In this document: piece after piece, positions 607 through 62,266 of the stretch
Position numbering within the stretch: the first letter of the stretch is position 1
Layout: the number at the start of each line of letters is the position of its first letter
NCBI GenBank assembly: GCA_002699025.1
Contig: PABA01000048.1
Span: forward strand, 62,001 to 126,000
Reading direction: 5' to 3'
DNA length: 64,000 bases
From: Sandaracinus sp.
Lineage (GTDB): Bacteria > Myxococcota_A > Polyangia > Polyangiales > Houyiibacteriaceae
The notes under the pieces: model-generated
What the model saw: the letters and a program-made list of their open reading frames with translations, nothing else
What the model was told of the DNA's origin: nothing
Database searches by the model: none
Program-made: the position numbers and the translations under genes

Positions 607-632
607 GTCAGATCCGCGGCCGTCCAACCGTC
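607..632 (+). promoter_or_regulatory. ECF-like promoter motif (GTCAGAT-15-CGTC) for the helicase gene
   Basis: GTCAGAT at 607-613 and CGTC at 629-632, separated by 15 nt; 11 nt remain to the ATG at 644. It belongs to the set of ten matching sites described in the findings. Confidence 0.7.
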
Positions 633-6520: not shown

Positions 6521-6545
6521 GACGACGCGCGAGGGGGGATCTGAC
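6521..6545 (-). promoter_or_regulatory. ECF-like promoter motif (GTCAGAT-14-CGTC) for the GRDP/TauD pair
   Basis: On the minus strand GTCAGAT occupies 6545-6539 and CGTC 6524-6521, 14 nt apart, ending 8 nt before ATG 6512. Confidence 0.7.
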
Positions 6546-10665: not shown

Positions 10666-10690
10666 GTCAGATCTCGGCCGTCGCGGCGTC
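10666..10690 (+). promoter_or_regulatory. ECF-like promoter motif (GTCAGAT-14-CGTC) before gene 10699
   Basis: GTCAGAT at 10666-10672, 14 nt, CGTC at 10687-10690, then 8 nt to ATG 10699. The spacing equals that at 11056, 15863 and 6512. Confidence 0.65.
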
Positions 10691-11022: not shown

Positions 11023-11047
11023 GTCAGGTCGAGACCGCGGACACGTC
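11023..11047 (+). promoter_or_regulatory. ECF-like promoter motif variant (GTCAGGT-14-CGTC) for the exonuclease
   Basis: GTCAGGT at 11023-11029 (one change from consensus), 14 nt, CGTC at 11044-11047, then 8 nt to ATG 11056. Confidence 0.6.
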
Positions 11048-13662: not shown

Positions 13663-13687
13663 GACGATGCCGCTCGGTGAATCTGAC
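13663..13687 (-). promoter_or_regulatory. ECF-like promoter motif (GTCAGAT-14-CGTC) for the 33-residue gene
   Basis: On the minus strand GTCAGAT occupies 13687-13681 and CGTC 13666-13663, 14 nt apart. The first downstream gene is the small ORF starting at 13614. Confidence 0.6.
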
Positions 13688-14021: not shown

Positions 14022-15146
14022 ATGGCGGATGCGGTGGAGGAGTGGGTCCTCTATGTCGACGAGTCGGGCGACTTCGAGAGCGACCCGTGCTCGTGCGTGA
14101 TCGGGCTGGCGCTGCGGGAGCGCGAGTCGGCCGAGTTGGCGCGGCAACTGCGAGCCTGCGTCGAGCTCTGCTTCCCGCTCGTGCCCTGGCCTCCGCACGC
14201 GACCGAGCTCAACGTGCCCATCACCCGAGCCGCGGCGTGCCTGCTCGCGGACGGCGGCGATTCAGCGGTGCGAGACACCTGTGCTCCGGCCCTCGCGGCG
14301 CTCGAGGGAGGCCGGGGGCAGGTGGAGGTCGATCGCTTGTTTGCGGCGACCGAGGCGCGGCGCATGCCCGACTACGTCGACCTGCAGTCGGCGGACGGGT
14401 GGCTCCGTCGGCGGGCCCCGGCGGCTCACCAGGCCTTGCTCGAGCTTCGCGACCGGCAGCGTCGGCACGTGAGGGCCCTCTTCGCCCAGCTCGTGCAGCT
14501 CTATGGGCCGGATGACGTCTTCGTCGTCGGCGCGGCGCAGAAGGGCGACGGCGCCTCGCGAGCAGATGCCTACTCGCGCTGCCTCGGTGCGCTCCTCGAG
14601 CGGCTCCTCGCGCTGCTCCAGGAGGAGGGGAGGGAGCGGGTCGTGCGCTTTCGGGTCGCGACGCGCGGCGTGCTCGACCCGCGGCTTCGGGCCTCGGTGC
14701 CGCTCAACGCCCGGCACATCGTCGAGGCGGTCGAGGCCGCGAAGCCCTTCGCAGCGCGGCTGACCGGCGCCGATTCGAGCGTTCGGCTGGTGCCCCTCGA
14801 GCACGTCACGAAGTACGATCGCCGGGTGCACGCGGGCGTGGTCCTCGCCGATTTCCTGTCGAACCGGCTGCGGAGCGTGCTCCGGCGCAACACCTCCTGG
14901 GCGCGCACGGAGGAGGGAGTTCGGGAGCGCGTCGGGGTCGCAGCGCAGGCGCGGGCGCGGAGCTGGGAGGCCGAGGTGTTGCCCGCTCTGGCCCACGAGG
15001 GTCCGGCGCGGGCCTGGCTCGAGAGGGCGCTGGGCCTCGACCCGAGCGAGCGGCCGCACCTGGGATTCATGCGCCCGCGGTGGGCAGGCGAGCAGGCCCG
15101 TCTCTGGGCGGACGCGGCAAACGCCGGCGCGGAGATCGGCGCGTGA
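14022..15146 (+). CDS. DUF3800-like protein (RNase H-fold, YVDESGD)
   Basis: A 374-residue protein that opens with WVLYVDESGDFE, the hallmark of DUF3800, a family with an RNase H-like core often found in phage-defence and mobile regions. It continues with CVIGLALRERES and ATELNVPITRA. Near residue 275 it has VHAGVVLADFLSNRLRSVL, which carries the distal Asp expected of the fold. It may be a nuclease; catalysis is not shown. ATG 14022 is preferred because a promoter-like site ends 7 nt upstream; an ATG at 14004 and a TTG at 13995 are in frame. The stop overlaps the GTG of the sigma-like gene by four bases, so the two are co-translated. Confidence 0.65.
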   Translation: MADAVEEWVLYVDESGDFESDPCSCVIGLALRERESAELARQLRACVELCFPLVPWPPHATELNVPITRAAACLLADGGDSAVRDTCAPALAALEGGRGQVEVDRLFAATEARRMPDYVDLQSADGWLRRRAPAAHQALLELRDRQRRHVRALFAQLVQLYGPDDVFVVGAAQKGDGASRADAYSRCLGALLERLLALLQEEGRERVVRFRVATRGVLDPRLRASVPLNARHIVEAVEAAKPFAARLTGADSSVRLVPLEHVTKYDRRVHAGVVLADFLSNRLRSVLRRNTSWARTEEGVRERVGVAAQARARSWEAEVLPALAHEGPARAWLERALGLDPSERPHLGFMRPRWAGEQARLWADAANAGAEIGA

Positions 15147-15817
15147 GCTTGGTCGAGGCGATGCGGGTGCTCGCGGGGCAGGCCGGCGACCGGACGAAGG
15201 CGGCTTCGCTCTTGCGTGATGTGGTCGTGGCGAGCGCGAAGCGGCAGCGGCCCGACGCGCCTGATTCCAAGCGCGAGGAGGCCGTGGCCGAGGCCGTCTA
15301 CAGGCTCCTGAACCGGCTCGCGCGCGGGCCCCTGGACGCGGAGCACGATGGGGGCGTGCGGAAGTACGTGAACCTGGTCGTGCGGAGCGCCTTCGTCGAC
15401 GTGGAGCGGCAGGGGCAGCGGCACGCCGGCGGCAAAGAGCCCGACGAGCTGCCGTCCGAGGCTCCGGAGGATACCCACGACGAGGTCCTGGAGCAGGCCG
15501 CGGAGCTCGGGGGCCGCGTGCTCGCGGCCGCGGCGGCCCGGTTTCCGCGCGCGAAAGCCTCGCTGCAGGAGACGTTCCCCGAGCTGGTCCGGCTGGCCGA
15601 GGGGACCACGACGGTCGAGGAGCTCCTCGGCGGGGTGGGGGAGGCGGCCTTCGAGCGGCAGCGAAACGCGCTCTACAAGCGCCATGAACGCACGCGTAGT
15701 CGTCTCGTCGAGGCTCTCCGTTCGCTCGAGGCGGGCGAGGAGCTCGACGCCTTCGAGGCGCGGGCGGCAGCGGGCTACCTCCTCTGGTTGGGGGCGAAGG
15801 TCGGAGGGGCGAAATGA
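15143..15817 (+). CDS. ECF-like RNA polymerase sigma factor
   Basis: A 224-residue protein with two helical regions matching ECF sigma factors. A sigma-2-like segment (SKREEAVAEAVYRLLNRL, then VRKYVNLVVRSAFVDVERQ) corresponds to the 'DaEDvvQEvfLrl' and 'wL..i.rN..iD..RR' blocks. A sigma-4-like helix-turn-helix (TTTVEELLGGVGEAAFERQR, then KRHERTRSRLVEAL) corresponds to 'EIAe.Lg.s..tV...l.RAr..Lr..L'. The match is to pattern rather than a named subgroup. The GTG start at 15143 overlaps the DUF3800-like stop (GTGA); a longer frame from 15080 runs inside the upstream gene. A promoter of the GTCAGAT-CGTC type lies 13 nt after its stop, driving the next operon, so it is a candidate reader of that motif. 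Confidence 0.55.
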   Translation: MSLVEAMRVLAGQAGDRTKAASLLRDVVVASAKRQRPDAPDSKREEAVAEAVYRLLNRLARGPLDAEHDGGVRKYVNLVVRSAFVDVERQGQRHAGGKEPDELPSEAPEDTHDEVLEQAAELGGRVLAAAAARFPRAKASLQETFPELVRLAEGTTTVEELLGGVGEAAFERQRNALYKRHERTRSRLVEALRSLEAGEELDAFEARAAAGYLLWLGAKVGGAK

Positions 15818-15829
15818 TCGCCGTGAACG

Positions 15830-15854
15830 GTCAGATTCCGAGGGCGTCCTCGTC
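15830..15854 (+). promoter_or_regulatory. ECF-like promoter motif (GTCAGAT-14-CGTC) for the Lon/nuclease/helicase operon
   Basis: GTCAGAT at 15830-15836, 14 nt, CGTC at 15851-15854, then 8 nt to ATG 15863. The bases before it (GTGAACG) are shared with the site before the exonuclease gene. Confidence 0.75.
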
Positions 15855-15862
15855 TCACGGGC

Positions 15863-16930
15863 ATGGAGACTCGCATCGTGGCTGAGCTGAGCGCCGAAGA
15901 GCGCGCCCTCCTGGGGCTCGCGGCGGATGACGTCGTCGAGCTCGTCGGCGAGCGCGAAGCCCCGCCCTCCCCGGTGGGGAAGGCCTTCGCCTCCGAGCGG
16001 AGCCTCGAGGAGATCGTCGAGACGCTCGACCTCGAGCCGGACTTCGATCCGGTGTTCGAGACGGCGGCGGCCTTGCCCGAGGTGAAGCAATGGGCGCGGG
16101 CGCCGGGCATCTACAGCTTGGAGTGGACCGCCGACGTCCTCCGCGGGGAGCACGCCGAGTGGGCGGACCGGCGCGTGGTCGACGCGCGCCACACGCCCGC
16201 GCTCATCCGCCTACACGTGGGGCAGGACACCTTCGTGGCGCGCTTCGATGGCCGGAAGGCCACCGTATTCCGCACCGAGGCGAAGACCCGCCACCGCATC
16301 GACCCGCCGGCGCCGGTCGAACGCATCGAGATACCCGCGCCCGAGCTGGCGTCGCTGCTCGGCGACCGGAGCACGCCCGCTTGGTTGGAGAGCGCCTTCG
16401 GCGAGCTCGCCCCATCGCCCTACGCGCCCAGTCGGCTCGCTGCGGCCGGCCTGGTCGTGCGTGGCTGGGGCCCGGCCTCGCCGGAGGAGCGAGCGCGGGA
16501 GACCGAGCGCTTGATCGCCGGGGAGCGCAGCCACATCGACGCGGTCCGGTCCTGGGTCGAGTCCATCTCTGCTCCGACGCGACGAGCAGTCGAGGAGAGC
16601 GCGACCGCCGACGCCGAAGTGCTCCCCGAACAGGCCGAGGCCCTGGCCATCGCTTTCGAGCGCGGAGCCGCCGTGGCCGAGAGCATCGCGGGCGCGCTCG
16701 TCCGAGCGCGCGACGATCTCACCTCCGTGGACGTCGCCCTCGGCCTCGTCGGGGAGGGCGACGCGCTCCGTCGGGCGCTCGCGGACACCGACGACGCCAT
16801 CGCCCTCCACATGACGCCGCTCACGCAGTGCGCTGCGGCGGTTCGGGCTACGATGGGCGAAGCGCGCCTGCGAGCGCTCAGACGCCTCGACGCCGGCGAG
16901 AGCTGGTGGCTCGGGGGCTGGCGGGCGTGA
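15863..16930 (+). CDS. Hypothetical protein upstream of a Lon-type protease
   Basis: A 355-residue soluble protein of unknown family. It starts with an acidic helical stretch (ELSAEERALLGLAADDVVELV), has a beta-rich middle (GIYSLEWTADVL, ALIRLHVGQDTFVARFDG) and a long helical C-terminus ending in a tryptophan-rich ESWWLGGW tail. No catalytic motif is visible. Its stop overlaps the GTG of the protease gene by four bases, so the two products are made together in fixed ratio. Between a sigma-like gene and a Lon-type protease it could be an anti-sigma or protease adaptor by analogy with CalpT, but there is no sequence similarity that I can show. Confidence 0.65.
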   Translation: METRIVAELSAEERALLGLAADDVVELVGEREAPPSPVGKAFASERSLEEIVETLDLEPDFDPVFETAAALPEVKQWARAPGIYSLEWTADVLRGEHAEWADRRVVDARHTPALIRLHVGQDTFVARFDGRKATVFRTEAKTRHRIDPPAPVERIEIPAPELASLLGDRSTPAWLESAFGELAPSPYAPSRLAAAGLVVRGWGPASPEERARETERLIAGERSHIDAVRSWVESISAPTRRAVEESATADAEVLPEQAEALAIAFERGAAVAESIAGALVRARDDLTSVDVALGLVGEGDALRRALADTDDAIALHMTPLTQCAAAVRATMGEARLRALRRLDAGESWWLGGWRA

Positions 16931-18675
16931 CGCTCCTCGAGCGCGCGGCCCTCGCCGGGGCGAGCAAGGTGCGCCTGGCGCGACGCGCGCTGAGCCACCC
17001 CGTCTGCTGGCCGAAGGACGCCGCCCGTCGTGAGCGCCTGCTCGCCGCCACCAGCATGGACGCTCCTCCGCACCCGAAGCCGGGCACGGCCCCGTTTCTG
17101 ACGATGAGCGAGGGGCGGGCCACGCTCTGGTCTCTCGAGCCCTCGGCGGGAGGCGACGGTTGGGTCGACCTCGGGCGAGTCGCAGAGAACGCGGTCGAGA
17201 CCGCGCGCCAGGTCGTCGCGCGGGATGTGGCCGCGCTCGCTCATCCCGAGCGGCTCATGGAGTCGCGCTCCTGGCGCGCGCGCCGGCTGGCCGTCGCGGG
17301 GACGGGGTGGGACCATCTCGTCGATGGCGCGTCGCTCGGAGTGGCGGCCGGCCTCGCCTTCATCTCCGAGCTCGCAGGGCAGCCCGTCCCGCCCGACGTG
17401 GTGGCCTCGGCCACGCTCGGTGCGGACGGGCGGGTGGGCCCCGTCGAGGGGCTCGCCAAGAAGCTCGACGTGGTCGCCGAGTGGGGCCTCGGCCTGCGCC
17501 GGTTCATCGTGGCGGCCGATCAGGAGGAGGAGCTCCGAGCGCTCTCGAAGGCGCGCGACCTCGCGCTCGAGGTGCACGGCGTGAGCGAGATCGCGGAGGT
17601 CGTGGACCTCGTGTTCCCCGAGCTCTTCGAGGACCTCCAGGGCCGTTGGAAGGCCCAGCCGAGCGAAGCCGTGCGCGTGGCACGGACGCTCTTCGAGCTC
17701 GCGCTCGAGAACACCCGGCTGCTCCAGGATTGGGCGGGTTTCGCGGATACGGCCGGTGTCGTCGCCGAGGTCGTTCAGGGCGAGGACGCGCGCCGAGAGG
17801 CGGAGATCGCGCGACAGATCGCGGAGCGACACATCGGGCGTGCGCGGCCGCTGCGGCTCGACGAGGGGTGGCTACGGGGCCAGCGCCGGCCGATCCGGTT
17901 GCGTCTGCTCGCCCACGCCGTCCAGGCGGCCGCGGACGCCGCCGAAGACGACGAAGAGCTCGAAGCGCTGGCCCGGTCGCAGCTCGCGCCGGACCTCGAT
18001 CGTACGGGCGAGGACTTCCGCCTCCTCGGCGCGCTCGGTCGCTTCCATGCGGCGGAGCACCGCTTCGACCGGGCCCGGCGCGACCTGAGGGATGCGGTCG
18101 ACGGTTGGCTGGACATCGGCGCGATCGCTCAGGTGAGTCACCCGGCCTGCGAGCTCCTGCGTGTGCTGGGGGTGATGGGAGAAGTGGAGTCCCTCGAGAG
18201 GTTTCGGGAGGAGAAGCTGAGGCGTGTGTTGAACGACCCGCGGGTCGATCCGGTGAGCCGGACCTTCCTCGCGCTGGCCGAGGCGCGCGCCCTCGTGCAG
18301 CTCGGGCGAGAGCAGGAGGGGCTCGCCCGTATCGAGGCCGTCGGGCACGGGTGGGCGCTCGCGCCTCGCCACGTGCAGGCGAGCGCGGAGCGCTGGCGGG
18401 CCCGCGCACTCGATGTGCTGGGCCGGGAGGCGGCGGCGCAGGAGGCGCGAGCGCGGAGCAGGAGGATCGCCCAGGAGGGCAAGCAGAGCGCGAGCTTCTG
18501 CGACGCGCTCTGCCGGATCGATGCGGCGCTCCACGAGCGGGACGAGGCGGCCGCGGGCGCGGCGGTCGAGGAGCTCGGCGCGCACGACCAATATGGCCGG
18601 GACGTGGAGCGCATTGCGCGCCGGGTCGGCGACGAGAAGCTCGCGAACGCCCTCGCACGTCACTGGCGCTACTGA
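16927..18675 (+). CDS. Lon-type (S16) Ser-Lys protease without AAA+ domain, with helical repeats
   Basis: A 582-residue protein. The proteolytic domain of Lon is recognisable at ~residues 95-215: DGASLGVAAGLAFISELAG matches Lon's DGPSAG block, and GRVGPVEGLAKKLDVVAEWG matches 'G.V.PIGGLKEKL.AA'. The candidate dyad is S136 and K179, 43 residues apart, the same spacing as Ser679 and Lys722 of E. coli Lon. No Walker motifs are present, so it is not an ATP-dependent unfoldase. The C-terminal ~330 residues are TPR-like helices, probably a sensor or substrate-binding arm. The GTG start is fixed by the four-base overlap with the previous gene. Stand-alone Lon domains in defence loci act as triggered proteases (CalpL), but no SAVED domain is seen here. 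Confidence 0.75.
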   Translation: MTLLERAALAGASKVRLARRALSHPVCWPKDAARRERLLAATSMDAPPHPKPGTAPFLTMSEGRATLWSLEPSAGGDGWVDLGRVAENAVETARQVVARDVAALAHPERLMESRSWRARRLAVAGTGWDHLVDGASLGVAAGLAFISELAGQPVPPDVVASATLGADGRVGPVEGLAKKLDVVAEWGLGLRRFIVAADQEEELRALSKARDLALEVHGVSEIAEVVDLVFPELFEDLQGRWKAQPSEAVRVARTLFELALENTRLLQDWAGFADTAGVVAEVVQGEDARREAEIARQIAERHIGRARPLRLDEGWLRGQRRPIRLRLLAHAVQAAADAAEDDEELEALARSQLAPDLDRTGEDFRLLGALGRFHAAEHRFDRARRDLRDAVDGWLDIGAIAQVSHPACELLRVLGVMGEVESLERFREEKLRRVLNDPRVDPVSRTFLALAEARALVQLGREQEGLARIEAVGHGWALAPRHVQASAERWRARALDVLGREAAAQEARARSRRIAQEGKQSASFCDALCRIDAALHERDEAAAGAAVEELGAHDQYGRDVERIARRVGDEKLANALARHWRY

Positions 18676-18765: not shown

Positions 18766-19908
18766 GTGGGTGAGGGGACGCCACTCGGAGAGGTCGAGCT
18801 CGCGGCGCTGCGCGGTGGGCTCGCGCCCTCCACCAACACGGCGCGGGATCTCGCGGCGACGGCCCAGACGCCGTGCCCCCGGCGCCGCGCCCTGGCCGTG
18901 GTCGGCGCGCGCACGGAGGACGCGGCCGCCAGGCTCCCTGGGCCAGCGGCGCCATCCGGGCAGAGCCCCTTCGCGATCACCGTGGGGACACGCTTCGAGG
19001 AGATCCTCCGGCGCGACGGTGCGGCCCGGCTCCGCGAGGCCCTCGAGCGCGCCGTGCCGGTCGAGCTCGGAGAGCTGGAGCTCATCGACCTCGACGCGCG
19101 GCACCCCTGGCGACCCGGCGTGCCGCGCCCGGAGACCGCCGCGGCCCGGCGTTCGGCGACCGACGCGCTCGTCGCTGCCTGCCTCCGCGGCGAGGCCGAG
19201 GCGGACAGGCTCGTGCTGCACCCGCGCCTCGCGCTCACGGTCACCGACACGGCCCGTGACGTGGAGCCGGACGCGCTGCTCTGCCTTCGCGCGGGACGCG
19301 GGGCGCAGCCCGAGCTCCTCCTCGTCGAGATCAAGGCCTTCGTCGACCACGGCCACCGCACGGACACGCACGACCTGGCGTCCACGCGACTTCAGCTCGC
19401 GGTCTACGCGCTGGCCGTGCGCCAACAGCTGGCGCGCCTCGAGCTCGAGCCCCAGCCCATGCGGGAGGCCGTCGTGGTGCTCCGAGCGCCTGGCTCGATG
19501 GTCGGCTCGGCGAGCCTCGAGGAGGTGCACCGGGACGTGAGCCGTCTGGAACGAGCGCTCGCGCGAGCGCCGGCCACGCTGAGCGAGGTCCTGGCGACGC
19601 TGCCCGAGGGAGCCGCTCTCGACGACTCCGCCACGCTCTCCGCCCTGCCCGTACGCTACCGGCCCCACTACTGCCTGGCGAGCTGCGCCATGGCCCTGCA
19701 GTGCCGCGCGGGCGTGGAGGAAGCGGCGTCGCCGGAGTACTACGGGAGCCCGACCCGCGAGGTCTTCGCCGCCATCGGCGATCTTCGTCGCGCCCACGGC
19801 CTCGTCACCGGCAGCGAGGCATCCGAGACGGAAGAGGAGCGGGAGCTCGTGGCCCGCCTCGGCGTGCTCCGCCGGCGCATCGACGACGCGAGGCGCCGGT
19901 GTTCCTGA
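18766..19908 (+). CDS. Cas4/AddB-like PD-(D/E)XK nuclease with four-cysteine cluster
   Basis: A 380-residue nuclease. The active site is clear: D169 in VEPDALLCLR and E188-x-K190 in ELLLVEIKAF, followed by a glutamine-containing helix (STRLQLAVYALAV) typical of RecB/Cas4 motif III. One cysteine near the N-terminus (C37 in TPCPRRR) and three near the C-terminus (C303, C307, C313 in YCLASCAMALQC) are placed as in the iron-sulfur Cas4, AddB and Dna2 nucleases. It should cut single-stranded DNA ends. GTG 18766 begins 90 bp after the protease gene, and the next gene overlaps its end by ten bases. It is not near cas1, so it is not a CRISPR Cas4 here. Confidence 0.75.
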   Translation: MGEGTPLGEVELAALRGGLAPSTNTARDLAATAQTPCPRRRALAVVGARTEDAAARLPGPAAPSGQSPFAITVGTRFEEILRRDGAARLREALERAVPVELGELELIDLDARHPWRPGVPRPETAAARRSATDALVAACLRGEAEADRLVLHPRLALTVTDTARDVEPDALLCLRAGRGAQPELLLVEIKAFVDHGHRTDTHDLASTRLQLAVYALAVRQQLARLELEPQPMREAVVVLRAPGSMVGSASLEEVHRDVSRLERALARAPATLSEVLATLPEGAALDDSATLSALPVRYRPHYCLASCAMALQCRAGVEEAASPEYYGSPTREVFAAIGDLRRAHGLVTGSEASETEEERELVARLGVLRRRIDDARRRCS

Positions 19909-21302
19909 GCGCGGACGCCCAGGCCCTTCTCGCGGCGGAGGCCTTCGTCGAGGACGCGGCGGTGCGCGCCACCGGTTGCCGCCACCTTCGCGTCGACACG
20001 GCGCCCTTCATCCTCGTGCCCCTCGGGCTGGCCGGTGAAGACGGAGCGCCCCTCGCGTTCGGGTGGGGGCGCGGTGAAGAGATGGGCCTGTGCGTCGTGC
20101 CGGAGCCGCGCGACCGGGACGAGGTCTGGGCGGGGCTGACCGAGATGGCGCGGGTGCTCTGCCGCTGGATCGACCCGATCGGGGAGGCACGGATCGCGGT
20201 CGGGGAGAAGCGAAAGAGGTGGGTGACGCGGGAGTCGGCGCAGCTGGTCGTGCCCACGGGCGCGGGCGCCGACCTCCTCAGGAAGCTCGCGGCCCGCATG
20301 GTGTGGGCGCCCGAGGAGGTCGATCCCGTCGTCCGGCGCGCCGGTGGCTGGCTCCTCTTCTTCCTCGACCGGCACGAGCTCGCCCTCTGGGACAGCGCCT
20401 TGCTCATCGTGACGGAGGCGCTGGCGATGCACTGGACGTTGCCGTTGAGCGGCGCCGAGGGCAGCCACCTGCTCGCGAGCCTCGCGGCGCTCGAGCGGCC
20501 GGGAAGGGCGCGGGAAGCGGCCCAGGAGGTCGAGCACGAACCGGGCGGCGCGCTGACCATGCCCGACTTCGATGCGAAGAAGCTCGAGCCCGCCATCGCG
20601 GCCTACGGAGGGGCGGCTTCCTCGGAGGGACGAGCTGCGCGGCGGCGCGACGTCGAGGACTTGCTGCGCCCGATCGTGCGCCGGCTCTACGAGGCGTGTG
20701 TCTCGGGGCTCGAACGGCTCCGGGCCATCCCGCCCATCCCGGCCGTGCTCGAGGAGCGGCACGAGGACGAGCGAGAGGCGCTCGCCCGCCACGCGAGCTA
20801 CCTGCGGGAGGAGGGCCGCTTCTCGAAGGCCGACTCGCTGCGGCGGAGCGTGTTCTTGCTCGACGGCGTGGAAGGGGAGATGAAGCGCGTGCGGAGCTCC
20901 GCGCGGCGGCAGGACCCGGTGCTCCGCGCGGTCGCGATGTGCGAGGGCGCCGCGCTCGAGGGGGAGGTCCTGAGGTCGGACTGGGTCCGACAGAGGCCTC
21001 GCATCTTCCGGGCGGAGCTGGTGGTGCGGGTGTCCGGCGCGTGGCGAGCGAGCGTGGAGCGGTTCCAGGTCGTTTGGGAGCGCGAGAAGCCGGCGCACGT
21101 CGCGGTGATTGGAGTGGAGGCGGACGGCGAGCACACTCTCGTGCACCTGCGCAGCGCCGATCAGCACAAGCAGCTCCGCGAAGAGCTCGACGGTCTCCTC
21201 GCGCCGGGGCGACCGATCGCGCTCGTTCAGGAGGAGCGCTCGTTCCAGACCTTCGGCTTCCCGCCCGAGGTTCCCTGGATGCTTCGGGGGAGCGATGCCT
21301 GA
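19899..21302 (+). CDS. Hypothetical protein between Cas4-like nuclease and helicase
   Basis: A 467-residue protein with no recognised family. The N-terminal half is mixed alpha/beta (FILVPLGLAGEDGAPLAFGW, GGWLLFFLDRHELALWD). The middle is charged and helical (YLREEGRFSKADSLRRSVFL), and the last ~100 residues are beta-rich (FRAELVVRVSGAWRASVERF, HTLVHLRSADQHKQLREEL), possibly a barrel. Its GTG start overlaps the nuclease gene by ten bases, and its own end overlaps the helicase start by eight. The three products are therefore tightly coupled, and this one may supply the barrel/stalk part that Dna2/UPF1-type helicases normally carry in one chain. Confidence 0.65.
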   Translation: MFLSADAQALLAAEAFVEDAAVRATGCRHLRVDTAPFILVPLGLAGEDGAPLAFGWGRGEEMGLCVVPEPRDRDEVWAGLTEMARVLCRWIDPIGEARIAVGEKRKRWVTRESAQLVVPTGAGADLLRKLAARMVWAPEEVDPVVRRAGGWLLFFLDRHELALWDSALLIVTEALAMHWTLPLSGAEGSHLLASLAALERPGRAREAAQEVEHEPGGALTMPDFDAKKLEPAIAAYGGAASSEGRAARRRDVEDLLRPIVRRLYEACVSGLERLRAIPPIPAVLEERHEDEREALARHASYLREEGRFSKADSLRRSVFLLDGVEGEMKRVRSSARRQDPVLRAVAMCEGAALEGEVLRSDWVRQRPRIFRAELVVRVSGAWRASVERFQVVWEREKPAHVAVIGVEADGEHTLVHLRSADQHKQLREELDGLLAPGRPIALVQEERSFQTFGFPPEVPWMLRGSDA

Positions 21303-22680
21303 CGAGGAGCTGGCGGCGCGGGCCCGCGCGGTGATGGAAGACGTGGTCCGCGGCGCCGTGAGGGAGAAGGGCGCGCTCCTGCGCGTCGAAGCGCCGCCGG
21401 GCGCAGGCAAGACGCGCCTCATCAAGCGCGCCGTCCGGGAAGCGCTCGCCGCAGGCACGCAGACCCTCGTGGCCGTGCAGACGAACGCCCAGCTCGTCGA
21501 CCTGGCTCACGGGCTCGCGGCCGAGCTCGACGACGGCGTGGTCGGTGTGTGGACTTCCAGCGGGGCGCGCGAGGAGTTCGGTGAAGAGCTCGAGCAGGCG
21601 GCACGCTCGCCGCACGTGCGGCATCTGGAGCGCACCAAGGATCTGGAGGTCGGCTCGGTGCCGTCCGTCGTGGCGGCGGTCGCGGCGAAGTGGAGCCATC
21701 ACGCGAGTACGAGCCTGGGCCACCAGCGCATCGAGCGGCGCTTCGAGCTGGGCATCGTCGACGAGGCCTACCAGATGCCCGCCTCGCGGCTCTTCAAGTT
21801 CGGTCGGCTCCTGGAGCGGCTCGCGCTCGTCGGCGATCCGGGCCAGCTCGAGCCCTTCACGGAGGTCGACACGACTCGCTGGACCGGGCTCGAGGCGACC
21901 GCCCTCACGCCGGGGCCGCGCGCCGTCAGCGCGCTCTGCGACGTCGAGCCGATGGTGGTGCAGCTGCCCGCCTCCCTCCGGCTCGACCGGCGCGCCGCGC
22001 GGGTCGTCCAGCCTTGCTTCTACCCCGAGCTGGGCTTCGACGCCGTGGCCATCGAGGGCGACCGGGCGCTCGAGCTGCGGCCGGCCGCGAGCGACGCGAT
22101 CGATCGCGTCCTGGACCGGGCCGCCGAACGAGGCTGGGGCATCCTCGAGCTTCCGGCGCGCATCACCCTGCGCGACGACCCGGAGGTGGCGGCGCACCTC
22201 GCGGCGTTGGCCGAGCGGCTGGTCGCTCGGAAGGCGCGTGTGCGGGCACAGTGGCCCCCCGAGCTCCGTGGCGGGGCGCCGCTCGACCCCTCATGCATCG
22301 CCGTCGCCACCTCCCACCGCGACCAGCGGGAGCGGGTCCGGGAGGCCCTCGCCGGCGGGCCGGCCGAGGGCGCCGTGGTCGACACGGCCAACCGGCTCCA
22401 GGGCCGCGAGTTCGACGTGGTGCTCGTCTGGCATCCGCTCTCCGGGCGCGTCGAGGCGTCGGAGTTCCACCTCGACACCGGTCGCCTCTGCGTGATGGCG
22501 TCCCGGCACCGGCAGGCCTGCATCTTCGTCTGCCGGGCGGGCGTGCCCGAGCTGCTCGACGAGCACCTTCCCTCCGGCGCACGGCCCAAGGGCGCCCACG
22601 ACGACCGCGAGCACGACGGCTGGCTCGCGCACCGCCAGCTCTTCGAGCTCCTCGCCGACACCACCGTCCCGGTCCGCTGA
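21295..22680 (+). CDS. SF1B (Dna2/UPF1-like) DNA helicase
   Basis: A 461-residue compact helicase motor. Walker A APPGAGKT is at residues 33-40 and Walker B LGIVDEAYQMP near 155, with DEAY rather than the usual DEAQ. LVGDPGQLEPF is near 178, motif V RLQGREFDVVLVW near 368 and motif VI LCVMASRHRQACIFV near 400. Length and motif spacing match the minimal RecA pair of Dna2/UPF1-like enzymes without accessory domains. With the iron-sulfur nuclease two genes upstream it would make a split nuclease-helicase. ATG 21295 overlaps the preceding gene by eight bases. The operon ends here against a converging gene 21 bp away. Confidence 0.75.
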   Translation: MPDEELAARARAVMEDVVRGAVREKGALLRVEAPPGAGKTRLIKRAVREALAAGTQTLVAVQTNAQLVDLAHGLAAELDDGVVGVWTSSGAREEFGEELEQAARSPHVRHLERTKDLEVGSVPSVVAAVAAKWSHHASTSLGHQRIERRFELGIVDEAYQMPASRLFKFGRLLERLALVGDPGQLEPFTEVDTTRWTGLEATALTPGPRAVSALCDVEPMVVQLPASLRLDRRAARVVQPCFYPELGFDAVAIEGDRALELRPAASDAIDRVLDRAAERGWGILELPARITLRDDPEVAAHLAALAERLVARKARVRAQWPPELRGGAPLDPSCIAVATSHRDQRERVREALAGGPAEGAVVDTANRLQGREFDVVLVWHPLSGRVEASEFHLDTGRLCVMASRHRQACIFVCRAGVPELLDEHLPSGARPKGAHDDREHDGWLAHRQLFELLADTTVPVR

Positions 22681-25268: not shown

Positions 25269-25293
25269 GACGGGCGCGCGCGGAGCATCTGAC
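25269..25293 (-). promoter_or_regulatory. ECF-like promoter motif (GTCAGAT-14-CGTC) for the GIY-YIG pair
   Basis: On the minus strand GTCAGAT at 25293-25287, 14 nt, CGTC at 25272-25269, then 12 nt to ATG 25256. It lies in the 69-bp gap downstream of sbcC. Confidence 0.7.
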
Positions 25294-30444: not shown

Positions 30445-30469
30445 GACGGCGCGGGCGAGTCGATCTGAC
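30445..30469 (-). promoter_or_regulatory. ECF-like promoter motif (GTCAGAT-14-CGTC) for the sbcDC operon
   Basis: On the minus strand GTCAGAT at 30469-30463, 14 nt, CGTC at 30448-30445, then 9 nt to the GTG at 30435. Confidence 0.7.
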
Positions 30470-57015: not shown

Positions 57016-57309
57016 TCACTCGCCGTCGATGATCTCGAACGCCGGCGGCACCTCGAGCAGGCCGACGCCGGCGCCGACGTGCTCGATGCGCCGCGCGCAG
57101 GCGCCGCAGAGCCGATAGTACCGGAGGCTGTCGGTCTCCGGGTCGATGCGTCCCTCGAGGTCGCTCCGCAGGCGCAGGTAGGCCGCGCGCCGCAGGACGG
57201 TCGCCTCGAAGACGCTCTTCTGCACCCGGCGCGCGTCGTCGAGGAGCCGCTTGGCGACGCGGTAGCGCGACCGATCGTCGGTGATGTCGAAGCTGATCAG
57301 CGTGTGCAC
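57016..57309 (-). CDS. cas2: CRISPR adaptation protein Cas2
   Basis: A 97-residue Cas2 of normal length. The first strand ISFDITDDRSRYRVAK contains the conserved Asp (D8). The helix ARRVQKSVFEATVLRR and the following strand-rich part (YLRLRSDLEGRI, DSLRYYRLCGACA) match the ferredoxin-like Cas2 dimer fold that bridges two Cas1 dimers during spacer insertion. It starts 32 bp after the cas1 stop, last in the adaptation operon, and points toward the array leader. Confidence 0.93.
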   Translation of the reverse strand: MHTLISFDITDDRSRYRVAKRLLDDARRVQKSVFEATVLRRAAYLRLRSDLEGRIDPETDSLRYYRLCGACARRIEHVGAGVGLLEVPPAFEIIDGE

Positions 57310-57341
57310 GGGTCCTCCTCGTCGCGTCGAGCCGGGCGCGT

Positions 57342-58355
57342 TCAGCGCATGGCGTAGGGCGCGTACTCCTCTTCGCCGAGCACGTGGCGCGCGTAACGGC
57401 GGACCTGCGCCTCGATCACCTGGGCCCAGCTCAGGCGCACGCCGCGCGGCTCGTAGGCGAGGCGGCGCTCGAGGCGCCGCTCGAAGAGCGTCACGAGCCA
57501 GCGGACAGTCTCGCGACGCAGGAGGACGGGCTCGCCGGGGCCCACCTCTTCGAAGTCCTCGGTGGTGAAGCTGCGGTGGTTGATGGCGGCGACCACGAGG
57601 GCGTCGACGATGGGCACGCGGAACTCCTCGACGAGGTCGCAGGCGAGGGAGGGGCGGCCGGCCTGCGTCGCGTGGAGCGTGCCGAGCCAGGGGTCGAGGC
57701 CGACGGCGCGCACGGCGCCCTCGACGCGGCCGTGGAGGAGCGTGTAGGCGAGCGAGAGGAGGGCGTTGACCGGGTCGAGGGGCGGTCGGCGGCTGCGCCC
57801 CTCGAAGCGGAAGGCGTCGTTGCGGAGCTGGTCGCCGAAGACGCGGAAGTAGGCGGCGGCCCCCGCGCCCTCGCAGCCACGGAGCTCGTCCAGATCCTCG
57901 GCGAGCGACGCGCGGATGCGGGCGGCCCGGAGGGAGCTCCGGGCGACGGCGAGGGCGTGCGTGTCGCCGTGGCGGCGGGCGTGGCGAAGGAGGAAGGCGC
58001 GCTGGTTGGCGAGCTTGCCGCGCACGATCGTGCGCGCCGTGGCGAGCGCGGCGACGGGGTCGGTGGTCAGGGCGTACTGGCGCAGGCGGAGCCGGGCGTT
58101 GGAGGAGGCGCCGCCGACGATGCGGCCGCGGTAGCGGCCGGTGTGGCTGAGGAGGACGGTGTCGACGCCGCGGTCGACGAGGCTGCCGAGGGCGGCGGGC
58201 GTGAGCGTGATGTTGCCGAGGAGCACGAGGCGCTGGAGATCGCGGAGGCGCACCTCGGCGACGGTCTTCTTGCGCGCTACGACGCGGAGGCGCTCGCCGC
58301 TCCGGCGGAGGACGGCGCCCGGGTGGGTGACGTAGACGGTGCGGCGCTCGCTCAT
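57342..58355 (-). CDS. cas1: CRISPR integrase Cas1
   Basis: A 337-residue Cas1, the enzyme that inserts new spacers. The N-terminal beta domain (TVYVTHPGAVLRRSGERLRV, then RLVLLGNITLTPAAL) precedes the helical catalytic domain. The metal ligands are E162 in GCEGAGAAAYF, H228 in LGTLHAT and D240 in SLACDLVEEFR, with spacing like that of E. coli Cas1. There is no reverse-transcriptase fusion, although that is common in type III loci; a separate primase-polymerase is encoded upstream instead. ATG 58355 overlaps the primase-polymerase stop by four bases. Longer upstream frames are shadows. Confidence 0.95.
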   Translation of the reverse strand: MSERRTVYVTHPGAVLRRSGERLRVVARKKTVAEVRLRDLQRLVLLGNITLTPAALGSLVDRGVDTVLLSHTGRYRGRIVGGASSNARLRLRQYALTTDPVAALATARTIVRGKLANQRAFLLRHARRHGDTHALAVARSSLRAARIRASLAEDLDELRGCEGAGAAAYFRVFGDQLRNDAFRFEGRSRRPPLDPVNALLSLAYTLLHGRVEGAVRAVGLDPWLGTLHATQAGRPSLACDLVEEFRVPIVDALVVAAINHRSFTTEDFEEVGPGEPVLLRRETVRWLVTLFERRLERRLAYEPRGVRLSWAQVIEAQVRRYARHVLGEEEYAPYAMR

Positions 58356-60028
58356 GGGGTGGGCTCGGAGGCGCCGTCGGCCGCGCCGTCGGCGGAGGCG
58401 GTGGGCGCGGGGCCGTCGCCGGGAGGGGCCGCGGCGGGGTCGTCGCCCCCCTCCAGGCGACGCAGTCGGGCGTCGAGGGCGCGCACGGCGTCGCCGAGCT
58501 CCTCGACGGGCTCGGGCCCGAGCTCCGCCTGCCCGAGCCAGGGGGCGAAGGCGGCGTGGCGCGGCTCGCCTCGCGGCGCCTCGACGGCGAAGAGGGCCGG
58601 AGTCGGGTAGGGCTGGGCGTCCCGGTGGCGCATGGCGCAGCCGCGGCAGCGGGCGTCGCCCCCGAGGGCGCGGAGGCGCTTGCAGCCGACGGGAGAAGGG
58701 AGGCCCCGACGGACGCGGTGGAGCTCGCGCATGGGGACGCCGGCGGCGACGAGCGCGTCGCGGGCGGTGGTGGGCTCGGGGCCGAGGAGCCCGAGGCTGT
58801 AGATCAGGGCGCGGGCTTCGGGGGCGTCGAGGTGGCGCTCCGCGTAGGCGCGATCGACGAGGGCGCGGAGCTGGGCGCAGCGGGCGAGGACGCGGTCGGC
58901 GGCGCCCCGGGCATCGGGCCCTTCGCCGAGGGCGCGGAGCGCGCTCGCGAGGCTGCGGGGCGTGGAGGCGGCCGGGGGCGCGGGGGCCGCCTCGGAGCGG
59001 GCGGAGGGGAGGGGGAGGCTGAGCATGCGCCGACCGAGGATGGCGTCGGCCTGGGGCGGGTCGACGGGGCGGAGCCGGCGGAGGGCCGCCTCGGGCGATT
59101 CGATGGGCTCGAAGCCGTCCGTGAGCAGGGGGCAGCGGCGGAGCGTGGCCTGGTGGAGGCCGAGGGGGAGCTTGATGAGGGAGGAGAGGCCGCGGCGGCC
59201 GGGGGCGTCCTGCTTCGGGAAGAGCTCGAGGGAGACGTCGGCGGGGGGCGCCCCGGCGACCTCGAGGAGGTGGCGGAGGAGCTGGCGGGCGGCTCGGGCC
59301 GGGCGGCGGGGCGCGAAGAAGAGCCAGAGGTGGAGGCCCTTGCCGCCGCTGTCTTCCGGGAAGAGGGGGAGGCCGAGGCGCGCGCCGGCTTCGAGGAGGC
59401 GGGCGGCGTAGGCGCGGAGGACCGGGTGGCGGACGGGGGAGCCGGGCCCGTGGCCGGCCTCGAGCTCGGCGAGGGCGGAGGCGGAGAGGTCGAGGTCGAA
59501 GGCGGCGAAGGAGACGGTGCCGTCGGGAAAGAGCGGGTACTGGCCGACGGTGTGGCGGCCGGCGAGGTGGTCGAGGGCGACCTGCTCGGTGAAGGGCTCG
59601 CGGACCGGGCGGTAGCCGCTCCGGCGGCGGCGGCGGTCGTGCCATTGGCGGGCGTAGAGGTCCGGGCGCCCGCCGAACCACTGGAGGAAGAGGCGAGCGA
59701 GGGCGGTGTCGGGGCGCTCGAGGGGCGCGCGGCGGAGGTCGAGGGCGTCGGCCTCGGCCTCGGCGGCGTCCTCCTCGGTGGGCGCGCCGGGGGCGTCCGC
59801 CAGGAGGGCCCGATCGAGCCGGGCGGCGTCGTCGGCGGGGAGGGCGGCGCGGAGGGCGCGGGCGGTCTCGAGGTCGCCGGCCTCGACGAAGCGGAGGGCC
59901 CAGCGGAGGCGCTCGCGCGGGGTCGTGGGGGGCCGGGCGGCGTGGGCAGCGCGGAGGGCCTCCAGGTCGGTGGCGGGGAGGGTCTCGGCGGGCGCGGCGG
60001 GGGGCTGCGGGGAGTCGGCGTCGGTCAT
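58352..60028 (-). CDS. CRISPR-associated primase-polymerase (CAPP, AEP family)
   Basis: A 558-residue archaeo-eukaryotic-type primase-polymerase. Recognisable motifs are AAFDLDLSASA (metal-binding Asp pair, ~177-180), EDSGGKGLHLWLFF (the SGGKGxH nucleotide site, ~225-236) and SLIKLPLGLH (~285-295), preceded by a helical N-terminal region. The last ~120 residues contain a cysteine cluster (VGCKRLRALGG, ARCRGCAMRH) that may bind iron-sulfur or zinc. CAPPs sit next to cas1-cas2 in type III systems and are thought to copy or fill in DNA/RNA for new spacers. Both ends overlap neighbours by four bases (TPR gene upstream, cas1 downstream), so the three act as one unit. Confidence 0.85.
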   Translation of the reverse strand: MTDADSPQPPAAPAETLPATDLEALRAAHAARPPTTPRERLRWALRFVEAGDLETARALRAALPADDAARLDRALLADAPGAPTEEDAAEAEADALDLRRAPLERPDTALARLFLQWFGGRPDLYARQWHDRRRRRSGYRPVREPFTEQVALDHLAGRHTVGQYPLFPDGTVSFAAFDLDLSASALAELEAGHGPGSPVRHPVLRAYAARLLEAGARLGLPLFPEDSGGKGLHLWLFFAPRRPARAARQLLRHLLEVAGAPPADVSLELFPKQDAPGRRGLSSLIKLPLGLHQATLRRCPLLTDGFEPIESPEAALRRLRPVDPPQADAILGRRMLSLPLPSARSEAAPAPPAASTPRSLASALRALGEGPDARGAADRVLARCAQLRALVDRAYAERHLDAPEARALIYSLGLLGPEPTTARDALVAAGVPMRELHRVRRGLPSPVGCKRLRALGGDARCRGCAMRHRDAQPYPTPALFAVEAPRGEPRHAAFAPWLGQAELGPEPVEELGDAVRALDARLRRLEGGDDPAAAPPGDGPAPTASADGAADGASEPTP

Positions 60029-61251
60029 GCCTGCTCCTCCTGCGGGGGCGAGGAGAGGGGGCGGCGCGCGCGGTCGGGCTCGACCTTGCGGAGGCGGGCG
60101 TGGATGCGCTCGGCGGGCTCGTCCTTGCCGCGCGCCTCGAGCACCGCGGCGAGGCCGCGGAGGGCCGGGGCGTGCTCCTTGGACCAGCGCTTCCGCGCGA
60201 AGTCGACGGCCTTGCGGTAGGTGCGCTCGGCGCGCTTCAGCTCGCCGCGTTCGGCGTGGGCGTCGGCGAGGCGGGTCCAGGTGAGGTGCTTGCCCATGCG
60301 GTCCTTCTGGATGGCGGCGTGCCAGCTCGAGAGGGCGCCCTCGAGGTCGCCGGCTGCGCGCTGGAGGTCGCCGAGGCGGCGCCAGATCCAGGCGGCGCGG
60401 CGCTCGGGTCGGGTGTGGGCCTCGAGCCAGCGGATGGCCTCGGGGAGGTCGCCGCGGGCTTCGGCGACCTCGGAGAGGCGCACGAGGAGGTGGTCGCGGC
60501 GGGGCGGGCCCTTGGCGTCGAGGGCGAGGCGGAAGGCGCGCTCGGCGTGGTCGAGCTCGCCGTTCGCGAGGCAGGCGCGGCCGGCGAGGTCGAGGCGGTG
60601 CATGGGGTCGAGGTGGTCGTGGGGGGCGTCGGCCCGCTGGCAGGCGAAGGCGAGGCGGCGGGCGAGCTTCACCCGGCCCAGGCGCAGGGCGGAGCGGCCG
60701 GCGGCGTAGAGGGCCTTGGCGTGGGTCTTCCGGAGGTCGCCGCGCTCGCGGAGGGGCGCGGGGAGGGCGCGGTAGGCGGTGATGGCGGCGAGGAAGGCGC
60801 GGAGGGCGACCTTGTCGTGGGCGCTCTCCACCTGGGCCTCGAAGACGCCGAGGCGGTAGAGGTCCTTGACGCTCTGCGGGTCGAGCTCGAGGGCCTCGGC
60901 GACCCAGCGGCGGAAGCCGTCGCGGGCCTCCTCGAGGGAGAAGGCCTGGTCGGGGTCGCGGGGGCGGCGGCGGACGAGGGCGGCCTCGTAGTGGACGTAG
61001 GCGAGGGCCGAGGCGCGGCGCCAGGTGGGGGCGAGCTGGAAGGTGGCGCGCCAGAGGTCGGCGGCGTCGCGGTAGCGGGCGAGGCGGCCGAGGGCGAAGG
61101 CGACCTCGTCGGCGAGGGGGAGCCAGGCGGGGTCGAGGGGCTCGGGGAGGAGGGGGGCGAGGGCGGCGATGGCGGGCCAGTCGCAGCGCTTCTTGGCGTC
61201 GCGGGCGGCGAGGAGGTGGAGGCGGGGGGATTCGGGGGCGGGGTGCTGCAT
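60025..61251 (-). CDS. TPR-repeat protein of the CRISPR adaptation operon
   Basis: A 408-residue all-helical protein made of tetratricopeptide-like repeats, e.g. PTWRRASALAYVHYEAALV, GDLPEAIRWLEAHTRPERRA, GDLEGALSSWHAAIQKD and GELKRAERTYRKAVDFARKR. Such a protein is regularly found beside CAPP-type primases in type III loci and presumably scaffolds the adaptation complex. ATG 61251 is the first gene after a GTCAGAT-15-CGTC promoter (61275-61300), so TPR-CAPP-cas1-cas2 form one transcription unit separable from the cmr genes. Confidence 0.8.
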   Translation of the reverse strand: MQHPAPESPRLHLLAARDAKKRCDWPAIAALAPLLPEPLDPAWLPLADEVAFALGRLARYRDAADLWRATFQLAPTWRRASALAYVHYEAALVRRRPRDPDQAFSLEEARDGFRRWVAEALELDPQSVKDLYRLGVFEAQVESAHDKVALRAFLAAITAYRALPAPLRERGDLRKTHAKALYAAGRSALRLGRVKLARRLAFACQRADAPHDHLDPMHRLDLAGRACLANGELDHAERAFRLALDAKGPPRRDHLLVRLSEVAEARGDLPEAIRWLEAHTRPERRAAWIWRRLGDLQRAAGDLEGALSSWHAAIQKDRMGKHLTWTRLADAHAERGELKRAERTYRKAVDFARKRWSKEHAPALRGLAAVLEARGKDEPAERIHARLRKVEPDRARRPLSSPPQEEQA

Positions 61252-61274: not shown

Positions 61275-61300
61275 GACGCGCGCGGGGCGGCGGATCTGAC
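61275..61300 (-). promoter_or_regulatory. ECF-like promoter motif (GTCAGAT-15-CGTC) for the adaptation operon
   Basis: On the minus strand GTCAGAT at 61300-61294, 15 nt, CGTC at 61278-61275, then 23 nt to ATG 61251. It lies in the 94-bp gap between cas6 and the TPR gene. Confidence 0.65.
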
Positions 61301-61345: not shown

Positions 61346-62266
61346 TCAGTCGGCGCTCAGGCTGACGTCGAAGGCGCCGAGGCCGAGGGCCGTGCCCTTG
61401 CCGAGGCCGAAGGGGCGGGCGGCGTGGAGGAGGGCGGCGAGGGGCGCGACCTCGCCGCGGAGGAGGGCGCCGCCGAGGCTGCCGTGGACGGGGTGGCGGC
61501 GGCGCTGGCGGGCCGAGTAGCGCTTCTCTCGGAAGGGGCTCCACTGGCCGTCGACGAGCTCGAGGTCGCGGGTGAGGCGCTCGGCGAGCTCGACGAGGTG
61601 GACCTCGGCGGGGGGCTCGCCGTAGGCGGCCTGGAGGGCGGCGAGGCGACGGGCGGCGGCGAGGGCGAGATCGTAGGGGCGGGGACGCTCGAGGAGGGCG
61701 CCGTCGCGGCGGAGGACGAGGGGGGTGTGCGTGGCGAAGCGGAGGACCCGGGGGGTCGGCGGGGCCTGGAGGGGGGCGACCGTCTCGCGGAGGGGGAGGT
61801 CGGTGAGGGCGCCGTCGACGAGGAGCGGGCGGCCGGCAGAGCGGAGGGCCTCGACGCGGACGCGCTGGCGTTCGCGGCCGAAGTCGAGCTCCGGGAGCTG
61901 GGTCGTGAGGGCCTCGAGGAGCGCGGTGAGGGAGGTGGGGTCGCGGTGGAGGGCGACGAGCTCGAAGCGGAGGGGGGCGCCCGGGGAGAGGTGGCGGCGG
62001 CGGGCGGCGACGGAGGGGGGACGGAGGGCGAGGGGCGGGACGTCGGCGACGGGGAGCCAGGCGGGGAGCGGGGCGTGGTGGGGGCGGAGCCAGCGGGCGG
62101 CGGAGGGGCTCTCGGCGTGGGTCTCGGCGGCGTCGCGGTGGCGGAGGGCCTGACCGAGGGCGCCGTGGAAGGTGGAGCCGAGCCAGCCGGGGAGCTCGAG
62201 CGGGGTGGCGGCGCGGAGGGTGAGGGCAAGGCGGACGAAGGGGGGCGGGGTGAAGGGGAGGCTCAC
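61346..62266 (-). CDS. cas6: Cas6-family pre-crRNA endoribonuclease
   Basis: A 306-residue RAMP protein with two ferredoxin-like halves. The N-terminus (PPFVRLALTLRAATPLELPG, then STFHGALGQAL) and the C-terminal glycine loop (PFGLGKGTALGLGAFDV) are the Cas6 signature. It cuts the long CRISPR transcript inside each repeat, leaving the 8-nt ATTGAGAC handle. A catalytic His cannot be fixed from sequence; the region RRRHPVHGSLGG is a candidate. The GTG start at 62266 overlaps the cmr6 stop by four bases. Longer minus-strand frames across cmr6 are shadows. Confidence 0.8.
   Translation of the reverse strand: MSLPFTPPPFVRLALTLRAATPLELPGWLGSTFHGALGQALRHRDAAETHAESPSAARWLRPHHAPLPAWLPVADVPPLALRPPSVAARRRHLSPGAPLRFELVALHRDPTSLTALLEALTTQLPELDFGRERQRVRVEALRSAGRPLLVDGALTDLPLRETVAPLQAPPTPRVLRFATHTPLVLRRDGALLERPRPYDLALAAARRLAALQAAYGEPPAEVHLVELAERLTRDLELVDGQWSPFREKRYSARQRRRHPVHGSLGGALLRGEVAPLAALLHAARPFGLGKGTALGLGAFDVSLSAD

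What the first reader, a model, noticed from the sequence alone, without database searches (positions are those of the whole stretch)
14022..18675. Sigma factor, unknown protein and Lon-type protease in a row: a possible protease-triggered sigma switch
An ECF-like sigma gene (15143-15817) is followed by an operon starting with an unknown protein (15863) and a Lon-type Ser-Lys protease lacking AAA+ (16927; candidate dyad S136/K179, with the same 43-residue spacing as E. coli Lon). The operon promoter is the shared GTCAGAT-CGTC motif, and a weaker copy precedes the gene upstream of the sigma. In the known CalpL-CalpT-CalpS system a Lon protease cuts an anti-sigma to free a sigma factor during type III CRISPR signalling. 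Here the sigma could read the motif, the unknown protein could hold it, and the protease could release it. That would couple phage or damage sensing to the regulon that includes the CRISPR adaptation genes. The roles of the unknown protein and the trigger are speculation.
Basis: partly seen in the sequence, partly recalled or inferred. Interest (0 to 1): 0.85.

Follow-up and report, generated by a model that had tools for sequence, protein, structure and literature searches.

The report
Protease-controlled sigma switch for defence island
A small alternative sigma factor, a new partner protein and a Lon-type protease form a conserved gene set whose predicted promoter sits in front of CRISPR and other anti-phage genes, so this looks like a master switch for a whole bacterial immunity island rather than for one system.

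Summary
The 224-aa protein (SIG) has an ECF-type sigma region 2 (region 4 is diverged). The Lon-type Ser136/Lys179 dyad is conserved in all 19 full-length relatives. The 355-aa protein (UNK) is a new family found next to SIG in nearly every locus in the phylum. GTCAGAT-N14/15-CGTC is a real ECF-like promoter, often leaderless (ATG 8-9 nt after CGTC). In the own 9.2-Mb genome 10 of 13 sites lie in this island, and the same clustering around SIG recurs in five related genomes. The sites precede UNK-Lon, SbcCD, a DEDDh nuclease, TPR-PrimPol-Cas1-Cas2 and the type III-B operon. The SIG-UNK pair swaps proteases: Lon-TPR (here), CARF-Lon (3 loci) or subtilase with GAF (4 loci). UNK has a 140-170 aa C-terminal extension exactly when its neighbour is CARF-Lon. 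Best reading: UNK is the anti-sigma, the protease cleaves it, and the freed sigma turns on the regulon. It works like CalpL/T/S and CASP but is a member of neither; no SAVED/CARF was found here and the Lon-TPR trigger is unknown. The sigma-motif link is likely; the anti-sigma role and the cleavage are inferred.

The parts
14022..15146 (+). DUF3800-like protein (374 aa), first gene of the 4-gene set; role unknown; missing in several loci
   Evidence: Pfam DUF3800 reached weakly by 3 of 14 relatives; adjacent in most sigma loci
15143..15817 (+). SIG: ECF-like sigma factor (224 aa); sigma2 clear, sigma4 diverged
   Evidence: Profile hits ECF sigma structures, 2q1z 8e-7; 6 of 21 members hit Pfam Sigma70_r2; AlphaFold model pLDDT 93 with sigma2 matches to ECF sigmas, Z 9.7 over 80 residues, rmsd 2.4; hhalign sigma2 97.7%, sigma4 alone 3.8%
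15830..15854 (+). Promoter GTCAGAT-N14-CGTC in front of UNK-LON; ATG follows 8 nt later (leaderless by spacing)
   Evidence: Same element before UNK in at least 17 diverged loci, although in some it lies inside the sigma coding end
15863..16930 (+). UNK: 355-aa sigma partner, predicted anti-sigma; N-terminal beta domain, low-confidence linker about 141-149, conserved all-helical C-terminal domain ending in WW
   Evidence: No Pfam or PDB relative; model pLDDT 88; next to SIG in nearly all loci; C-terminal extension only with CARF-Lon partners
16927..18675 (+). LON: Lon-type Ser-Lys protease without AAA+, with a C-terminal TPR-like helical half; dyad S136/K179
   Evidence: Pfam Lon_C; PDB Lon relatives 1e-13; dyad 19/19; TPR hits in 6 of 22 members
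18766..22680 (+). PD-(D/E)XK-like nuclease, unknown protein, SF1 helicase: probably a separate defence unit; in G141 it is apart from the operon and carries its own motif sites
   Evidence: Pfam; conserved trio in G159, G199, G141; motif L062:18143 and 18501
607..632 (+). Motif site (N15) before a 1042-aa P-loop/helicase-like protein (ATG 644)
6521..6545 (-). Motif site, ATG 8 nt downstream (6512)
10666..10690 (+). Motif site, ATG 8 nt downstream (10699, 106-aa ORF)
11023..11047 (+). Motif site variant GTCAGGT, ATG 8 nt downstream: DEDDh exonuclease (11056), followed by the kinase gene (11651)
25269..25293 (-). Motif site before the 200-aa gene starting at 25256
30445..30469 (-). Motif site before a 62-aa gene followed by SbcD and SbcC genes (25326-30250)
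   Evidence: SbcC/SbcD named from sequence and from matches
61275..61300 (-). Motif site (N15) before the CRISPR adaptation operon TPR-PrimPol-Cas1-Cas2 (57016-61251)
   Evidence: same element before the TPR gene in 7 of 8 genomes
57016..61251 (-). CRISPR adaptation operon: TPR protein, PrimPol (CAPP), Cas1, Cas2
61346..64000 (-). 3' part of the type III-B operon (Cas6, Cmr6, Cmr5); it continues outside the window to Cmr4, Cmr1, Cmr3, Cas10, Csx1, whose start carries a motif site at contig C59:132958-132982

Best explanation
A dedicated immunity sigma switch. SIG is an ECF-like sigma factor that reads GTCAGAT-N14/15-CGTC promoters. UNK, made from such a promoter, binds SIG and keeps it inactive (anti-sigma, negative feedback). 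On an infection cue the neighbouring protease (here Lon with a TPR-like sensing or docking half) cleaves UNK, SIG is freed, and it transcribes the regulon: UNK-Lon itself, SbcCD, DEDDh nuclease, the type III-B effector operon, the TPR-PrimPol-Cas1-Cas2 adaptation operon and further genes of the island, many probably as leaderless mRNAs. Well supported by comparative data: SIG is sigma-like, the promoter is real and its sites cluster around SIG, SIG-UNK is the near-invariant pair, proteases are interchangeable. Inferred: that SIG itself reads the motif (no binding test), that UNK inhibits SIG, that the protease cleaves UNK, and the nature of the cue.
For: Sigma fold. Protease dyad 19/19. Promoter: 9 matches in window vs 0.58 expected; 10 of 13 genome sites on the island contig. 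On the operon contigs of nine genomes 31 sites vs 1.06 expected, and 21 vs 0.85 leaving out the own genome. The element precedes UNK in at least 17 loci and precedes SIG itself in G141. Leaderless spacing peak at 8-9 nt. Regulon: adaptation operon motif in 7 of 8 genomes; type III operon in the own genome and at two Cas10 loci of G163. SIG-UNK adjacency replicated in loci found with the UNK profile alone. Protease swap: CARF-Lon in G035, G182, G328; subtilase with GAF in G167, G184, G211, G144. UNK C-terminal extension in 3/3 CARF-Lon loci and 0/34 others, p about 1e-4. Precedent for each step: CalpL/T/S (PMC11417357) and CASP (PMC10028731).
Against: No physical or expression data. UNK has no detectable relation to any known anti-sigma. 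Sigma region 4, which should read GTCAG, is only weakly recognisable. A GTCAGAC-N15-CGTC cluster on own contig C51 shows that another sigma may read a near-identical element. The motif was not found before UNK in several other-class loci. The tail-protease correlation rests on three loci. Sites on one island could share the motif by descent.
Confidence: 0.62

Rival explanations
1. The sigma and its regulon are real, but the wiring differs: the protease removes SIG itself (an off switch after induction), or UNK is an adaptor that brings SIG to the protease, not an anti-sigma.
For: UNK and LON are both made from the sigma-type promoter, as expected of a negative feedback arm; UNK-LON genes overlap.
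Against: SIG-UNK pairs exist with other proteases or with none recognised next to them; the known parallels CalpT and Csx30 are inhibitors cleaved by the protease (PMC11417357, PMC10028731); the CARF-Lon variant should be activated by infection signals, which fits an on switch.
Confidence: 0.2
2. The motif is read by another ECF sigma of the cell; SIG is a bystander or reads something else.
For: Region 4 of SIG is diverged; a second motif cluster of a near-identical type lies on another contig without SIG; G249 and G254 carry the motif before the adaptation operon but have only weak, ECF-like matches to SIG.
Against: Site clustering follows SIG loci in six genomes; the element sits at the SIG-UNK junction in at least 17 loci and before SIG in G141.
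Confidence: 0.12
3. The set is itself an effector: cleavage of UNK yields a harmful fragment (abortive response) and the sigma link is only for its own regulation.
For: Full-length Csx30, the CASP analogue, caused a growth defect in E. coli (PMC10028731); UNK is a new family without known function.
Against: The element also precedes many other defence operons, which a self-contained effector would not need.
Confidence: 0.06

Closest known systems
[quoted passage not shown] PMC11417357)
   Same: Lon-type Ser-Lys protease without AAA+, ECF-like sigma and a third protein in one locus; type III CRISPR nearby in some loci
   Different: No SAVED (or CARF) hit in this Lon; its C-terminus is TPR-like. 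UNK has no detected relation to solved structures, and a direct comparison with CalpT was not made. The promoter set here spans a whole island. Many genomes with the set lack a Cas10 hit.
CASP / Craspase: Cas7-11, Csx29 (TPR-CHAT), Csx30, CASP-sigma (type III-E; PMC10028731)
   Same: Protease with TPR region, an inhibitor candidate of more than one domain, an ECF sigma, and sigma motifs in front of cas1
   Different: Protease is Lon-type, not CHAT; no Cas7-11 seen; more target operons, and they cluster in the same island in several genomes
CARF-Lon proteases of type III loci (PADLOC PDLC01981)
   Same: In G035, G182 and G328 such a protein stands in the same sigma-UNK set, with a plausible Ser/Lys pair in the two sequences read
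   Different: The window's protease has a TPR-like half in place of CARF
Classical ECF sigma / anti-sigma pairs released by proteolysis (RpoE-RseA, SigW-RsiW)
   Same: Sigma gene followed by its presumed anti-sigma; release by proteolysis
   Different: The protease is encoded in the same operon and the target genes are immunity genes; no membrane step is proposed here

Membership tests
ECF sigma factors | Sigma region 2 fold | tested here: met
ECF sigma factors | Sigma region 4 (helix-turn-helix reading the -35 element) | tested here: inconclusive
   Co-linear in the full-length profile alignment but not significant alone
ECF sigma factors | Promoter with conserved -35 and a CGTC-type -10, 16-17 nt apart | tested here: met
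   GTCAG-N16/17-CGTC; that this sigma reads it is inferred
Lon (S16) protease domain | Catalytic Ser-Lys dyad | tested here: met
   S136/K179 in 19/19; Pfam Lon_C
Full LonA/LonB protease | AAA+ ATPase domain | tested here: not met
   No AAA hit in the protein, and the region before the protease domain is too short for one
CalpL/T/S | SAVED sensor fused to Lon | tested here: not met
   No SAVED or CARF Pfam hit in 22 family members; TPR hits in the C-terminal half instead
CalpL/T/S | Protease cleaves an anti-sigma and frees the sigma | not testable with these tools
   Needs biochemistry
CASP (type III-E) | Cas7-11 effector and CHAT protease | tested here: not met
   CRISPR locus is type III-B with Cas10 and Cmr genes; the protease is Lon-type
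Known anti-sigma families | Recognisable anti-sigma domain in UNK | tested here: inconclusive
   No Pfam or PDB sequence hit and no convincing fold match
DUF3800 | Pfam PF12686 above its cut-off | tested here: inconclusive
   3 of 14 members weakly, best E = 0.029; the window protein none

The most novel reading that the evidence does not exclude
SIG-UNK is a general sigma/anti-sigma chassis of Myxococcota immunity with plug-in proteases (Lon-TPR, CARF-Lon, subtilase with GAF), each bringing its own trigger, and it switches on an entire defence island at once: CRISPR adaptation, type III-B interference and unrelated systems, from leaderless promoters.
Probability: 0.5. Interest if true: 0.92.

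Novelty: new variant of a known kind. Interest (0 to 1): 0.83.

Why it matters
How defence islands are turned on together, and whether CRISPR spacer acquisition is induced by infection, are open questions. Here a predicted regulon with a readable promoter code puts acquisition genes, interference genes and other systems under one dedicated sigma, with a protease as the likely trigger. The promoter sites, the sigma-UNK complex and the cleavage are each testable in E. coli with a reporter. The swap of proteases on a constant sigma-UNK core offers natural variants for finding what each protease senses.

Tried and rejected
Raw motif counts per genome do not discriminate: 280 of 290 genomes have some match; only position relative to the sigma is informative. 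The reversed-pattern control is too low and was not used as an expectation. Fold searches with UNK gave nothing above background. Relatives by back-translated patterns failed for UNK and in viral contigs for LON, and found only six named myxobacterial-type MAG loci for LON. The 942-aa 'LON' of L077 was first taken for a possible sensor fusion; its first 370 or so residues look like an artefact of my gene caller. SAVED/CARF in the window protease: none. The 'weaker copy' upstream of 14022: not seen in relatives. Type III signalling as the universal trigger: Cas10 found in 6 of 20 genomes with the set and 2 of 20 without, so not general (only one Cas10 profile used, so some may be missed). A SIG:UNK complex model could not be run with the tools given.
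Full report
Observation. DUF3800-SIG and UNK-LON overlap by a few bases; the promoter lies between the two pairs. The window lies on contig C59 of genome G000; named genomes with the closest LON relatives are Polyangiaceae, Myxococcales and Deltaproteobacteria MAGs, so the organism is most likely a Myxococcota bacterium.

Sigma. The single sequence has no sigma hit in Pfam, but 6 of 21 relatives hit Sigma70_r2, the family profile finds ECF sigma structures in the PDB (RpoE/SigE 2q1z 8e-7, SigL 6e-6), and the model (pLDDT 93) matches ECF sigma region 2, best Z 9.7 over 80 residues at 2.4 A, nearly all top rows being sigma factors. A profile comparison with four ordinary ECF sigmas from related genomes gives 98.4% over the full length, 97.7% for region 2 and nothing convincing for region 4 alone. 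So sigma2 is shown and sigma4 is plausible only.

Protease. Lon_C is found by Pfam, and the profile hits Lon protease structures at 1e-13. Ser136 and Lys179 are identical in all 19 relatives that have the domain. There is no AAA+ domain. The C-terminal half is the best conserved part and is TPR-like (6 of 22 members hit TPR_12; no SAVED or CARF).

UNK. It has no Pfam or PDB relative. The model (pLDDT 88) has an N-terminal beta domain, a low-confidence linker at 141-149 and an all-helical C-terminal domain ending in a conserved WW; no fold match stands out.

Conserved neighbourhood. In a sample of 290 genomes of the class, SIG-UNK-LON, usually with the DUF3800-like gene in front, recurs in many loci down to about 20-30% identity. 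A phylum-wide search with the UNK profile alone found 31 of 379 genomes; in 20 freshly fetched loci SIG stands upstream in nearly all (in two it is unclear: one contig ends, one neighbour is too diverged to label), and LON follows in most.

Protease swap. In G035 the gene after UNK is a CARF-Lon protein (E = 3e-41) in a row PrimPol-Cas1-Cas2-SIG-UNK-CARF-Lon. In G182 the row is DUF3800-SIG-UNK-(Csx1-like)-(Lon-CARF-Csx20). In G328 it is DUF3800-SIG-UNK-CARF-Lon. In G167, G184, G211 and a second G144 locus SIG-UNK follows a GAF-like protein and a subtilase (GAF from reading the sequence). UNK carries an extra 140-170 residues at its C-terminus in all three CARF-Lon loci and in none of about 34 others (Fisher p about 1e-4; the sequences are related by descent, so this is a guide only). 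This ties UNK to the protease.

Promoter. GTCAGATN{4,14}CGTC gives 9 matches in the window against 0.58 expected. In the whole genome the N14/N15 form occurs 13 times, 10 of them on this contig within about 71 kb, and all seven N14 sites are there. The three remaining genome sites show no start codon at the usual distance. In relatives with the operon the same pattern clusters on the operon contig: G159 6 of 15, G199 3 of 8, G141 4 of 15, G169 5 of 11, G163 2 of 12; in all 21 against 0.85 expected without the own genome (contigs were chosen because they carry the operon or its parts, not for the motif). The element GTCAG-N16/17-CGTC stands before UNK in at least 17 loci. In some of them it lies inside the end of the sigma coding sequence and in others outside it, so conservation of the DNA rather than of the protein explains it. 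In G141 it precedes SIG itself. In 12 of 40 sites with a good ORF the start codon is exactly 8 nt after CGTC and in 5 it is 9 nt after, which points to leaderless transcripts; this is an inference from spacing.

Regulon. In the own island the sites precede UNK-LON, a helicase-like protein (644), DEDDh exonuclease and kinase (11056), SbcD-SbcC (through 30435), several unknown genes, the adaptation operon TPR-PrimPol-Cas1-Cas2 (61251) and, outside the window, the operon Csx1-Cas10-Cmr3-Cmr1-Cmr4-Cmr5-Cmr6-Cas6. The adaptation operon carries the element within about 90 nt upstream of the matched start in 7 of 8 genomes that have its TPR gene, two of which lack a close SIG. Two Cas10 loci of G163 carry it too. 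In G141 it precedes a type I-like methyltransferase, in G169 a MoxR-type ATPase of conflict systems. Genomes with the adaptation TPR gene are enriched for the LON family (5 of 8).

Mechanism. The best reading is a sigma switch: UNK holds SIG, the protease cleaves UNK, SIG turns on the regulon. The steps are known from CalpL/T/S (PMC11417357) and CASP (PMC10028731), where the sigma motif was also found before cas1. What is new here is a partner protein without known relatives, the Lon-TPR protease, interchangeable proteases on one core, and a promoter set covering an island with adaptation, interference and unrelated systems. The cue for Lon-TPR is open: only 6 of 20 genomes with the set gave a Cas10 hit. 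For CARF-Lon loci a cyclic oligoadenylate cue is likely from the known role of CARF domains.

Limits. All evidence is comparative. Most genomes are MAGs. Gene calls outside the window come from a simple script. A near-identical element (GTCAGAC-N15-CGTC) clusters on contig C51 of the same genome, so a second sigma with similar taste is possible. I found no paper in the held library describing this set, but that library is partial.

Noticed in passing
L124 (G000:C51:1-19999), sites at 6686, 10724, 13677, 15955, 15891-, 15244-: A second cluster of ECF-like sites of the form GTCAGA(C/G)-N15-CGTC on another contig of the same genome, next to lipoproteins and unknown genes with a weak LON relative at 10837; may be the regulon of a sister sigma.
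   Followed up: partly
window 18766-22680: A PD-(D/E)XK-like nuclease, an unknown protein and an SF1 helicase form a trio conserved in G159, G199 and G141, probably a defence system of its own.
   Followed up: partly
L075 5878-12575, L080 2696-9299, L125 6586-13271, L079 2431-7301: Proteins related to the TPR-like half of LON but without the protease domain follow giant proteins (about 1700 aa); in L079 (G233) next to the CRISPR adaptation TPR-PrimPol genes. Possibly another system that shares the sensing half.
   Followed up: no
L084, L085, L086, L186: GAF-like protein, subtilase, SIG and UNK in a row: a subtilase version of the sigma switch.
   Followed up: partly
L082 612-2348: A single protein with Lon-like, CARF and Csx20 (putative ring nuclease) parts: protease, sensor and signal remover in one chain.
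   Followed up: partly
window 35601-51130: A row of N6 methyltransferase with HSDR_N-like part, NERD-kinase fusion (1602 aa) and a very large protein (1867 aa), resembling a BREX/MADS-like system; no strict motif site was found at its start.
   Followed up: no
window 13663-13687 (-): A perfect N14 motif site with no called gene behind it on that strand.
   Followed up: no
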